From a virus: a stretch of 64,000 nt of DNA. Both the position numbers and the translations under genes were made by a program. The stretch is from positions 1-64,000 of the IMG/VR virus record IMGVR_UViG_3300028536_000014. One strand, given 5' to 3'. Of the stretch, positions 46,316-50,387 are shown piece after piece. The notes beneath the pieces are model-generated. The model worked only from the letters and a program-made list of their open reading frames with translations. It searched no databases and was not told the DNA's origin. How positions within the stretch are numbered: the first letter of the stretch is position 1; the number at the start of each line of letters is the position of its first letter.

Positions 46316-47533
46316 TTACCGACGCTGCCAGTTCCCTTCTTTTGCTACCCGATGCTTTTTCAGAAGTACTCCCTCCGAATATTCAGACGCCACCGGAAGA
46401 CCTTCAGCCGTACGATACGCGGTATAAAAATCCACCAAGAACCGTTTGACACAGAACCGAAGAGCCATGCGATGCTTCTGCAGAGGAGACTTTCCAGCAT
46501 GCTTAGGATTGTTTCCAAGCCGTTCCTTGTAGTTGTAGTAGGCCATCCCGTACGGAGAACCTTCACGCTCAACTGTGAAGCCCTGTCCCATCAGGAAATC
46601 ATTGATGACAGAGTTGGGATCTTCTTCGCCGATGGTCTTCTTGTCGAGTCCATGCTCAACAGCCAGCTCGAGACGTTTTGCCATACCCATTGCTTTGCCG
46701 TTGACCTTGAAAGAGGTCACCTTGAGGAATGCCGGTCCGATGACACCCAACAGCTTGGTTTTGAGGAACGGAGAATAGGTAATGGAATCACGAACAGCTG
46801 GGTTGTCGTTCTTGTCGATGTAGTCACGCTTCACCAACGAGTAGGACTTCATGTCACGTGCAACGCCCACCACATTGCACACCACACCCTTGTGAAAGAA
46901 CACGCCGTCCATGTTTTCCAACTCCGGAGCGTTCATCGCCTGTTCGAACGAAAGCCTGATGGTCTTGTTACCGACTTCGTATTCCACCACCTGGACGACA
47001 TCCAAACCACCGTACGCCCAAAGACTGGACGGGTACTCGGCCTTGTGGATGTCGATCTCGGAGATGAGAACACCAGCCGCTGCCGGGCCGATACCTGCTA
47101 CGCCTTGAAGAAAGTTCTTGTAGACAGGAACCGTTTTGAGCATGATGCCGATGTCAGCGAAGTGCTGCTCTTCGACGTCCAGAATCTTGACGTAGTTCTC
47201 GATCAGGAACAATTCGGCCATGTTGGTGATCAAATCGTCGGGTTGGAAATTGCGTTCCATCTGCAGACGTGTGACCATCTTGCCGCCGGTGATCTCGATG
47301 ATGCCGTCAGTTATACGATTGTAGGAATCACGCAGACGCTTCAGGATACCCTTTTCCTGAGCTCCGAGTTCCTTCTCAGACATGCCGTCGGTCGACATTC
47401 CAAGTTTGGTTCTGAAATTGCCAGCGGTGCGGTTACCGATCATGATACGCAGCTGCTGAAGATCGTAAACCGAACGAACCATCGTCCGAATCTGGGATCT
47501 TTGATATGCGGTGTTTGATGTGGGGTTACTCAC
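46316..47533 (-). CDS. IS110-like (Transposase_20, HhH) protein without RuvC domain
   Basis: 405 residues, GTG start with TAAGGAG upstream. Residues about 143-180 (GVAGIGPAAAGVLISEI, then LWAYGGLDV) match the helix-hairpin-helix start of the Transposase_20 domain of IS110/IS116 transposases. SPFLKTKLLGVIGPAFLKV (about 254-272) and the NPKHAGKS...ALRFCVKRFLVDFY end (342-370) also fit the family. The N-terminal 90 residues are helical and charged; the usual RuvC-like DEDD domain (GIDVSK-type opening) is not visible. No SG-type catalytic serine block is obvious after AYGGL. The gene is clearly more GC-rich than its neighbours. It lies directly downstream, in transcription sense, of the 36-nt array. 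Known: IS110 enzymes use a bridge RNA. Whether this one is a recombinase or a domesticated binder is open. Confidence 0.75.
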   Translation of the reverse strand: MSNPTSNTAYQRSQIRTMVRSVYDLQQLRIMIGNRTAGNFRTKLGMSTDGMSEKELGAQEKGILKRLRDSYNRITDGIIEITGGKMVTRLQMERNFQPDDLITNMAELFLIENYVKILDVEEQHFADIGIMLKTVPVYKNFLQGVAGIGPAAAGVLISEIDIHKAEYPSSLWAYGGLDVVQVVEYEVGNKTIRLSFEQAMNAPELENMDGVFFHKGVVCNVVGVARDMKSYSLVKRDYIDKNDNPAVRDSITYSPFLKTKLLGVIGPAFLKVTSFKVNGKAMGMAKRLELAVEHGLDKKTIGEEDPNSVINDFLMGQGFTVEREGSPYGMAYYNYKERLGNNPKHAGKSPLQKHRMALRFCVKRFLVDFYTAYRTAEGLPVASEYSEGVLLKKHRVAKEGNWQRR

Positions 47534-47942
47534 AATGATACTCCTTAGATTGATCTCACCTTTTTATTAAGGATGAGAAGATTGGCTTAACAGCTGGATG
47601 AAACGTTGACAACTCTGAATTCGGTTGATGCGCTACTTTCTATTGGTTTGCTTATACGCGTTGACACACTACGAGCAGATGGATGTCTTTTTTCACGTGA
47701 TTGAAACGTTGATGTCCTTTGGGGAAATCAGTTTATTTGACACACTTGTACGTCATGGGTGAATATCTAATTATGATGCACTAAATCCTTCTGGGTTACT
47801 AGCCAATAGAAATACGCTTAGTGTCGTTGTGTGAACACATTTCAATGACCTGACACGCTTTCATAGTGCGGATTACTACTTTTCATTGACACACTTGCTT
47901 ACATTGGGTAGCTATGAGAAGGTGATTGCACTGAACTCTCAC

Positions 47943-47968
47943 ATAAAGTATATGTGACTGAAATTGTT
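47943..47968 (-). promoter_or_regulatory. Promoter-like motif inside the array
   Basis: The minus strand reads TTTCAGTCACATATACTTTA, one mismatch from the consensus core. It replaces about two array units and points to the IS110-like gene 410 nt away, through the last units. Confidence 0.65.
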
Positions 47969-49317
47969 TCAGAATGGAGCGCTGTATCTTTAAGGTTTAC
48001 TCACGATCAGTTGACACACTTTTTCTCAATGGGTGACTAATTAGGGTTGATACACTAATCGAAAATGGGTGAATACGTCCTTTTGATACGTTAACGTCGT
48101 TTGGATTTACTTACGGCGTATGACTCACTTTTTTCCAATGGATAACTATGGATCGTTGGAACACTTTAACTTGCTGGATGAATTGCAGAAGATAGTGAAA
48201 CACTAGAATCTCGTGGATGGATACTTCCCGTTGATGCGTTTATCTGATATGGATGTCTACTGATGGTTAACACACGCTCGCGCTATTGGGTTTATTATTT
48301 CCACAGACACGTTCGTTGACACTGAGTGAATAAATTACTATGACACGTTCTGTACTTGTGGATGACTCTGGCGACAATAACACACTCGCTTATATTGGAT
48401 TACTTTGATATAATGATACATTCGCTGATTTTGATGGATAACTCGAATTCCATGACACATTCAAATACTAAGGTTGACTCTGATTCTTTAACACGTTTTA
48501 TCTTAGTGGATGTCTACAACCCAATGACACAATTAATCTTTGAAGGGTTTCTTTTCTCTTCTAATGTTCACTCTTGATCTTTGGATGAATACAGATCAAT
48601 GATCCGCTAGTTCAAATTGGGTTACTTCCGTACATTGACACACTTTTGTTGACTGGATGTCTACCGACTGATGATGCACTTAGCATTTATGGATTACTAT
48701 ATGTAAAAGGTACGATCTTTGCCCTTGGGGTTCTGAGGAAACTTGACTCAATTGATCGTTTTGGTTGACTTCTTCTTCAAGTTACACTTGTCACTACTGG
48801 ATGTCATGTAGATTTTTATTCACATATCAAGCATGGTTATCTTTTCATCTTTGATACACTTTCCACTAGTGGGCGACTTTTAATTCCTGATACGTTTTAC
48901 GGTTATGGTTGACTATTTGTCTACGACACACTTGAACCCCATGGTTGACTAATTGTAGTTGATACAATAATAACATCTGGATTTTTTCCTTATATTGTTT
49001 CACTACTTAACATTGGGTTTATTACCGCGTATGGTGCGCTAACGTTCTTTGGGATACTTTATTGATTTGACACACTTTTGATCTTTGGGTCACTTTAGAT
49101 CACTAATTCACTAGCCGATATGTGGTTATCTTCTTCCTCTAGATACGTTTAACCACTATGAATGTCTTAACTTCTCTGACATACTTTATGGAGATGGGTT
49201 TCTTTAATGGAATGATACATTTACGCAATATGGGTTCATCTTGAGTGATGACACACTATCGTTCTTTGGTTGACTTTCAGACAGTGGTTCACTAGATACT
49301 TATGGAGATCTTTTTTT

Positions 49318-49328
49318 GGGGGGGGGGG
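49318..49328. repeat. Run of 11 G after 7 T within the array
   Basis: The tract T7-G11 (49311-49328) adds about 8 nt and shifts the array register once. It could be a slippage-prone tract or a sequencing/assembly error. Confidence 0.8.
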
Positions 49329-49950
49329 TGATTCGTTTCCTCATTATGGATTTCTATTTGACATTAACACATTAATTTTCGCTGGGTTTATTCACACCGA
49401 TAACACGATAGATGATATTGGGTTTCTCCAGCATTTAACACACTAAGCTAATTTGGGTGAATGGTTTTAATTGATACACTTCGTATCGATGGTTGAATTC
49501 CAACATTTGGTACATTTTACTTCGATGATTTTCTTGATCTCTTTGATGCGATTGTATTCAATGGTTGTCTACACACTTATGTCACATTAGGTTATTTTGG
49601 ATGACTTTTTGTCGATGACGCACTAACGCTACTTGGATAACTCGTTTTCGATGATACATTGTCAGTTCACTGGGTGACTGTCGTCTTTTGATGCACTTTG
49701 AAAGGGTAGGTTTATCGGAGTCTGTGATACACTAAACCTCTATGGTAGAATTATGGTTATTGATACACTTGAATATTTATGGGTTACTGATAGTCAATGA
49801 TATTCGCTGCGTTCTTCTGGTTGACTCACTAATGGTAACACATTTGGTTGCTATGGTGTTCTTTCTTCTTCAAATTACACTAATGAATCGTGAGAATATT
49901 TCTATTGTGATACACTTGTACCTAATGGATGAATCTTTTCCCATGATTAT

Positions 49951-49966
49951 GAGAACTCTCGTTCTC
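49951..49966 (-). promoter_or_regulatory. Small inverted repeat at the likely array RNA 5' end
   Basis: GAGAAC-TCTC-GTTCTC: a 6-bp hairpin just downstream of the promoter core, so it would form the 5' tip of an array transcript. Confidence 0.5.
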
Positions 49967-49969
49967 AAA

Positions 49970-49995
49970 TAGAGTATGTATGATTGAAATAATTT
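49970..49995 (-). promoter_or_regulatory. Promoter-like motif at array start
   Basis: The minus strand reads TTTCAATCATACATACTCTA, identical to the 41241 copy over this stretch. It directs transcription into the array and on to the IS110-like gene. Confidence 0.75.
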
Positions 49996-50007: not shown

Positions 50008-50033
50008 AGAGAAGAGACAAAAGTCTCTTCTCT
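50008..50033 (-). terminator. Terminator insulating the array promoter
   Basis: 11-bp arms AGAGAAGAGAC and complement, 4-nt loop, followed on the minus strand by TTTTTTTG. It ends the HTH-gene transcript just before the array promoter. Confidence 0.8.
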
Positions 50034-50054: not shown

Positions 50055-50387
50055 CTACATGATTACTCGGTCGGAAAGACCGTCAATCACGCTATTGATC
50101 AACTCAGGATGCTTGTTGATCAACGTCAATACAAGACACTCGATATCATCCGGAGTCTTCTGCCCCGTTTCCCACCGCTGCATCGAGCCAGATGCAAACC
50201 CGTAGTAATTTTCAAATTCTCGTCGGGTAAGATCAGTCCGTGTCCGCGTAACCATGATGTTGAAAGGAGTTAACATCATAGCTTCACGAGTGGGTTTTCG
50301 ATCACCCACTGTACATTCCACTATTTCTTTGAGACCACGCAAAACAACTGCTTGCATTCCTTCAGACTGCCAGCCTTCATGTTGCAT
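50055..50387 (-). CDS. HTH regulator, Xre/NadS-like
   Basis: 110 residues with AGGGGG upstream. Residues about 52-95 (DLTRREFENYYGFASGSMQR, then WETGQKTPDD) form an Xre-type helix-turn-helix resembling NadS/HigA-type antitoxin regulators (LTQxEFAxxLGVSxxTVQRWExGxxxP). No toxin gene is adjacent. It sits at the right edge of the repeat array and is more GC-rich than the surroundings, like the IS110-like gene, so it may regulate that locus; that is inference. Confidence 0.75.
   Translation of the reverse strand: MQHEGWQSEGMQAVVLRGLKEIVECTVGDRKPTREAMMLTPFNIMVTRTRTDLTRREFENYYGFASGSMQRWETGQKTPDDIECLVLTLINKHPELINSVIDGLSDRVIM

What the first reader, a model, noticed from the sequence alone, without database searches (positions are those of the whole stretch)
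47594..49952. A 2.35-kb array of 36-nt composite repeats beside an IS110-like gene
Two different 10-nt boxes (A, TTGATACACT; B, ATGGGTTACT) alternate every 18 nt for about 64 full units, with 8 variable nt after each box. Fourteen successive A boxes from 48635 to 49103 are exactly 36 nt apart. This is not a CRISPR (the repeats are short and degenerate), not coding, and not a simple tandem repeat. IS110 enzymes are known to use a non-coding bridge RNA with short guide loops, encoded next to the gene. An array with over 100 short variable segments upstream of an IS110 relative could be a multi-guide RNA system, or a binding array for that protein. I know of no described system of this form.
Basis: partly seen in the sequence, partly recalled or inferred. 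Interest (0 to 1): 0.95.

Follow-up and report, generated by a model that had tools for sequence, protein, structure and literature searches.

The report
TIGR-Tas guide-RNA array in jumbo phage
A large bacterial virus carries more than 60 short paired guide sequences next to a protein that belongs to TIGR-Tas, an RNA-guided DNA-targeting system first described in 2025; related giant phages keep the same arrangement, and they preserve the guides themselves, which gives a way to ask what these guides aim at.

Summary
The array is real: autocorrelation at 36 nt has z = 14, about 63 units, and no gene runs through it. It is a dual-repeat TIGR array, and the "IS110-like" gene is its Tas protein. 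The protein hits NCBIfam TIGR_Tas_endo (E 3e-22, below that model's cut-off), and the ten best PDB fold matches are all TasH or TasR, ahead of IS110 recombinases. The claim that no such system is described is not: TIGR-Tas was published in 2025 (PMC12045711). No nuclease domain was found, so this is a TasA (solo Nop) type. At least six other jumbo phages of the same kind carry the same locus, and 45 of 49 full-length viral homologues have an adjacent 36-nt array. New here: a second, distal array in the same phage; units inherited as two-spacer cassettes; and spacers more conserved than repeats in shared units. Burkholderia phage FLC9, a relative, lacks the locus. No natural target was found in own, sister, FLC9 or (for one guide) 399 Burkholderiales genomes. 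New member of a known kind.

The parts
46316..47533 (-). tas gene (TasA type, 405 aa, GTG start): solo Nop-domain protein with two jumbo-phage-specific insertions (aa 185-224 and 275-323)
   Evidence: NCBIfam NF052498 TIGR_Tas_endo E 3.2e-22, below the model's cut-off of 100 bits; PDB 9mty (TasR) E 3e-13 and TasH E 7e-9 by profile; AlphaFold2 model pLDDT 83.6 whose ten best PDB fold matches are all TasH/TasR; insertions
47598..49948 (-). TIGR array, about 63 units of 36 nt. On the minus (tas-sense) strand: edge repeat AGUGUAUCA, 9-nt spacer, loop repeat AGUCACCCA, 9-nt spacer
   Evidence: sense strand
47598..47925 (-). tas-proximal sub-array (about 9 units), downstream of the internal promoter-like element
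47974..49948 (-). tas-distal sub-array (about 54 units)
47945..47965 (-). internal promoter-like element (read on plus as AAAGTATATGTGACTGAAATT), 412 nt upstream of tas
   Evidence: 20 of 21 match to an intergenic motif found about 15 times between minus-strand genes; promoter function inferred
49971..49991 (-). promoter-like element just 5' of the array
   Evidence: 17 of 21 match; promoter function inferred
50008..50033 (-). intrinsic-terminator-like hairpin ending the upstream gene, bounding the array on its 5' side
   Evidence: 11-bp stem and T-run

Best explanation
This is a TIGR-Tas locus of the TasA kind. The array is transcribed leftward on the minus strand, probably from a phage promoter at about 49991, and continues into tas; a second promoter inside the array probably drives tas and the last 9 units. 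By analogy with characterised systems, a Tas dimer binds the box-C/D-like repeats and the transcript is cut in the edge repeats into 36-nt tigRNAs, each carrying two 9-nt guides. One guide would pair with each strand of an 18-bp DNA site. With no nuclease domain found, the complex most likely binds, unwinds and bends its targets, silencing transcription or replication of host or competing DNA, rather than cutting. Shown here: Tas family and fold, dual-repeat array, conserved linkage, cassette inheritance of spacer pairs, low divergence of spacers in shared units. Inferred: expression, processing, targeting, silencing.
For: Protein: NCBIfam TIGR_Tas_endo hits 4 of 4 clade members, best 2e-28; the profile matches TasR and TasH chains; the top ten fold matches are TasH/TasR, then IS621/IS110, then archaeal Nop5. 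Array: 36-nt period, two alternating 9-nt repeats with 9-nt spacers, matching the published 8-12-nt repeats, 9-nt spacers and 36-nt tigRNAs. Linkage: an exact DNA search for the repeat pattern in 2.9 million viral contigs found four contigs, all with the array at a tas homologue; 45 of 49 full-length homologues have an adjacent 36-nt array. Sense strand: on the tas strand the arrays share repeats beginning A-G and ending CCA/UCA, and most non-jumbo loci have an A-rich loop repeat, as described for TIGR box C and loop repeats. Guides: in units shared by phages 89-92% identical, spacers differ by 2-6% against 9-15% for repeats; spacer distances are bimodal, conserved or replaced, while tas third codon positions differ by 20-27%. 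Unit logic: single units have moved between arrays with both spacers flanking the loop repeat intact.
Against: No natural target: opposite-strand 18-bp sites are no commoner than with shuffled spacer pairs in own, sister and FLC9 genomes, and one conserved guide has no site in 399 Burkholderiales genomes. The NCBIfam score is below the curated cut-off in the window protein (79.5 against 100 bits). Box D differs from TasR's UG. No terminator was seen at the array's 3' end. No within-copy base-pair covariation was found in the edge repeat. A naive whole-array alignment, in which replaced units count as substitutions, shows no spacer-repeat difference, so the conservation claim rests on matched units, which were partly chosen by spacer similarity.
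Confidence: 0.93

Rival explanations
1. A DNA-level binding array (centromere-, origin- or decoy-like): the Tas/IS110-like protein or another phage protein binds the repeated boxes as duplex DNA, and the variable segments are unselected linkers.
For: Regular 18-nt spacing of related boxes; the array is intergenic; TIGR TasA loci are sometimes linked to ParB-like genes in the literature.
Against: In shared units spacers are more conserved than the boxes; units move as two-spacer cassettes; the protein fold is that of RNA-guided Tas proteins; 18 nt is not a whole number of helical turns.
Confidence: 0.04
2. An IS110-type mobile element: the protein is a transposase and the array is a set of bridge-RNA-like guides directing transposition.
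For: Weak Transposase_20 match and PHROG 'transposase' label; the locus is present or absent between related phages.
Against: No DEDD domain hit in Pfam or NCBIfam; the protein starts directly with a coiled coil; IS621/ISCro4 fold matches are weaker than TasH/TasR; bridge RNAs are single units, not arrays of 60.
Confidence: 0.02
3. A true TIGR-Tas locus whose targets are the phage's own or sister phages' DNA, for example in competition between co-infecting jumbo phages (a narrower version of the best explanation, so its confidence overlaps with it).
For: Two G003 units have 17/18 matches with 0-2 bp gaps in the G003 genome, one of them in a gene conserved in sister phages G002 and G005.
Against: The total number of 17/18 matches equals that of shuffled controls; no excess in FLC9.
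Confidence: 0.15

Closest known systems
TIGR-TasA dual-repeat systems (Faure et al. 2025, PMC12045711)
   Same: Solo Nop-domain protein next to an array of two alternating repeats with 9-nt spacers in a 36-nt unit; repeats share box-C-like ends; phage-borne.
   Different: About 63 units against the 5-15 stated as most usual; two arrays about 87 kb apart; internal promoter-like element; repeats begin AGU rather than UG; Tas has two extra insertions (40 and 49 aa); hosted by phiKZ-type jumbo phages, which the paper's main text does not mention.
TIGR-TasR / TIGR-TasH
   Same: Nop fold (best PDB matches 9w04, 9mty, 9vzx) and array logic.
   Different: No N-terminal RuvC or HNH nuclease domain in the window protein.
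IS110/IS621 bridge-RNA recombinases
   Same: Related RNA-binding domain (ranks 11-15; Pfam Transposase_20 at E 0.026).
   Different: No DEDD domain found; array of many dual guides instead of one bridge RNA.
Box C/D snoRNP Nop5/Nop56/58
   Same: Distant fold similarity of the Nop domain.
   Different: No K-turn, L7Ae or fibrillarin known here; found in phages.

Membership tests
TIGR-Tas | Tas protein with a Nop domain | tested here: met
   NCBIfam NF052498 E 3e-22, sub-cut-off score; TasR/TasH by profile and by fold
TIGR-Tas | Adjacent array of two distinct alternating 8-12-nt repeats interspaced by about 9-nt spacers | tested here: met
   in all seven jumbo-phage records and 45 of 49 full-length homologues
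TIGR-Tas | 36-nt unit | tested here: met
   lag-36 autocorrelation z 14.2
TIGR-Tas | Edge and loop repeats share covarying box D (start) and box C (end) motifs | tested here: met
   On the tas strand both repeats start A-G and end UCA/CCA in the window clade and in its relatives; the TasR-type UG start is not present
TIGR-Tas | Array followed by an intrinsic terminator | tested here: inconclusive
   The 3' end of the array runs towards tas; no strong terminator between them
TIGR-Tas | Processing into 36-nt tigRNAs bound by Tas | not testable with these tools
   needs RNA sequencing
TIGR-Tas | Spacers A and B pair with opposite strands of one DNA target | tested here: inconclusive
   no target excess in own, sister or FLC9 genomes; one conserved guide absent from 399 Burkholderiales genomes
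TasR / TasH subtypes | N-terminal RuvC or HNH nuclease | tested here: not met
   no nuclease domain in Pfam/NCBIfam; model begins with the coiled-coil helix at residue 4
IS110 transposase | N-terminal DEDD (RuvC-like) domain | tested here: not met
   no Pfam or NCBIfam DEDD hit; N-terminus is a coiled coil
IS110 transposase | Single bridge RNA with target and donor loops at the element end | tested here: not met
   about 63-unit dual-repeat array instead
CRISPR array | 25-36-nt repeats with long spacers | tested here: not met
   9-nt degenerate repeats, 9-nt spacers

The most novel reading that the evidence does not exclude
A nuclease-free, RNA-guided silencing system of giant phages: a set of more than 60 inherited dual guides, held by purifying selection and exchanged as cassettes, directs TasA to bind (not cut) a fixed panel of host or competitor DNA sites during infection. 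This would give a native role for TasA, which is so far unknown.
Probability: 0.35. Interest if true: 0.8.

Novelty: new member of a known kind. Interest (0 to 1): 0.5.

Why it matters
TIGR-Tas is a recently described RNA-guided DNA-targeting family whose natural targets, array growth and the role of its nuclease-free TasA branch are open questions. This clade of jumbo phages offers a comparative data set: long arrays in closely related phages, unit-level gain, loss and movement, spacers conserved as if under selection, and a cultured relative (Burkholderia phage FLC9) that lacks the locus.

Tried and rejected
TRF did not see the array; Rfam gave nothing above gathering thresholds. BLAST of the locus DNA and of the Tas protein found no match in 50,697 phage records. 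The A1 profile found no homologue in genome contigs. Target searches: four geometries in eight own/sister genomes, own genome only and FLC9 gave no excess over shuffled pairs. A genome-contig scan for one conserved guide pair in the wrong strand geometry gave 46 scattered hits, in effect a negative control. The right geometry gave 3 viral contigs, about chance; the one examined (L224) looks like a tailed phage's structural-gene region. The same pattern gave no hit in 399 Burkholderiales genomes. Within-copy covariation in the edge repeat was not significant. The 'end element' first read as an array terminus is an intergenic motif used genome-wide.

Full report
What is there. Between window 47598 and 49948 lies an intergenic array with a strong 36-nt period (z 14.2 at lag 36, 9.3 at 72, 7.4 at 18). 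A cyclic alignment resolves about 63 units: a 9-nt repeat (plus-strand TGATACACT), a 9-nt variable segment, a second 9-nt repeat (TGGGTGACT) and a second 9-nt variable segment. The window is the first 64 kb of a 244,725-bp virus record. It encodes split RNA polymerase beta subunits and a DNA polymerase of the phiKZ-type jumbo phages.

The neighbouring protein. The gene at 46316-47533 (minus, 405 aa) matches Pfam Transposase_20 only marginally (E 0.026), but NCBIfam's TIGR-Tas model at 3e-22, and all four clade members match it. The window protein's score (79.5 bits) is below that model's curated cut-off of 100. A profile of the clade finds TasR (9mty, 3e-13) and TasH (7e-9) in the PDB. An AlphaFold2 model (pLDDT 83.6) has TasH and TasR as its ten best fold matches, followed by the IS621/ISCro4 bridge-RNA recombinases and then archaeal Nop5. 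No RuvC, HNH or DEDD domain was found by profile, and the N-terminus begins with the coiled coil. It is therefore a TasA-type (solo Nop) protein. Against smaller viral TasA homologues of about 285 aa it carries extra segments at residues 185-224 and 275-323.

What is known. TIGR-Tas (Faure et al., Science 2025, PMC12045711; [quoted passage not shown] It is processed to 36-nt tigRNAs whose two 9-nt spacers pair with opposite strands of one DNA site. Arrays most often have 5-15 units. TasA is the commonest effector and its function is unknown; natural targets have not been identified.

Strand. On the tas strand (minus) the repeats read AGUGUAUCA (edge) and AGUCACCCA (loop). In 44 of 49 full-length viral homologues the adjacent array's consensus on the tas strand contains CCA or UCA, and the arrays generally share repeats beginning A-G, with an A-rich loop (AGAAAMCCA) in most loci outside the jumbo-phage clade, whether the array lies upstream or downstream of tas. 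A 21-nt motif that recurs between minus-strand genes of this phage, typically 40-70 nt upstream of a gene, sits just 5' of the array (49971-49991) and again inside it (47945-47965); calling it a promoter is inference. Minus-strand order: gene 50387-50055, terminator-like hairpin, promoter-like motif, array, tas. A second array of 5-7 units, with the same motif on its 5' side, lies at 134822-135053 upstream of a different gene.

Distribution. An exact search for the repeat pair in 2.9 million viral contigs returned four contigs of 172-313 kb, all with the array beside a tas homologue 46-51% identical to the window's. With the homologues found by profile there are at least six further distinct jumbo phages with the locus (G001-G006; G007 is nearly identical to G002). 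Across IMG/VR, 45 of 49 full-length homologues have an adjacent 36-nt array; of the other four, two have the gene at the contig edge. Tas ranks first to third in amino-acid identity among about 75 proteins shared by the window phage and its relatives, although most share only about 32%. Burkholderia phage FLC9, collinear with G002 and 73% identical over 206 kb, lacks both tas and array; the 3.5-kb G002 segment with the locus is replaced by other small genes.

Array evolution (new here). G002, G003 and G005 are 89-92% identical in DNA over 91-94% of their length. They share 11-18 units pairwise. Several single units occupy different places in different arrays, with both spacers around the loop repeat preserved, while no isolated pair around an edge repeat was seen. 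This independently marks box A as the edge repeat and the loop-centred unit as the cassette. In matched 9+9-nt units spacers differ by 2-6% and repeats by 9-15%. Using all units with up to 6 of 18 differences, spacers differ by 4.6-8.7% and repeats by 9.3-14.2%, with a gap between conserved (4 or 5 at most) and replaced (7 or more) units. Tas third codon positions differ by 20-27%. Caveat: the matched set is chosen by spacer similarity, and an alignment of whole arrays, where replaced units count as substitutions, shows no spacer-repeat difference. The reading that spacers are under purifying selection rests on the bimodality, and would need more phages. Shared units lie mainly in the tas-distal part; the tas-proximal part is the more variable.

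Targets. Opposite-strand spacer pairs with 0-2 bp gaps are no commoner than with shuffled partners in own and sister genomes and in FLC9. One guide pair conserved in G001, G002, G003 and G005 has no site in 399 Burkholderiales genomes and only three viral contigs, about chance. Two G003 units with 17/18 self matches are a lead, not a result.

Mechanism. Best supported: the array is transcribed on the minus strand, processed at edge repeats into 36-nt tigRNAs bound by a Tas dimer, and used to bind DNA at two-strand sites without cutting. The protein family, array anatomy, linkage, cassette behaviour and sequence conservation are shown here; expression, processing, DNA targeting and silencing are inferred from the characterised systems.

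Verdict. It is a new member of a known kind, with an unusually long array, a second array in trans, and a comparative handle on two open questions about TIGR systems.

Noticed in passing
window phage genome 134822-135053 (L012:10822-11053): Second, distal TIGR array of about 5-7 units with the same repeats and the same promoter-like motif on its 5' side, upstream of a 293-aa gene of unknown function rather than tas.
   Followed up: partly
window 41242, 41681, 47945, 49971, 54388 and about 10 sites elsewhere in the phage: Intergenic 21-nt motif (plus strand AAAGTATATGTGATTGAAATT) between minus-strand genes; probably a phage promoter for leftward transcription.
   Followed up: partly
L012:6629-9196: Large ORF that looks like the terminase large subunit with an intein-like insertion (CFVGSTLVRT...VHNC), judged by eye from the translation.
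   Followed up: no
window 50055-50387 (-): Gene just upstream of the array encodes an MqsA/Aca2-like helix-turn-helix protein (Pfam PF15731 E 1e-7); it could be a regulator.
   Followed up: no
window 49316-49327: Run of 10 or more G inside one array unit, a length irregularity in an otherwise regular stretch.
   Followed up: no
L225-L231 (Burkholderia phage FLC9) 152342-154863: FLC9, related to sister phage G002, has other small genes exactly where G002 carries tas and the array, so the locus is a swappable module.
   Followed up: partly
G003 genome about 111634: A G003 guide pair matches 17 of 18 bases with a 2-bp gap at the end of a 363-aa gene of unknown function conserved in sister phages; within chance for the whole search.
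   Followed up: partly
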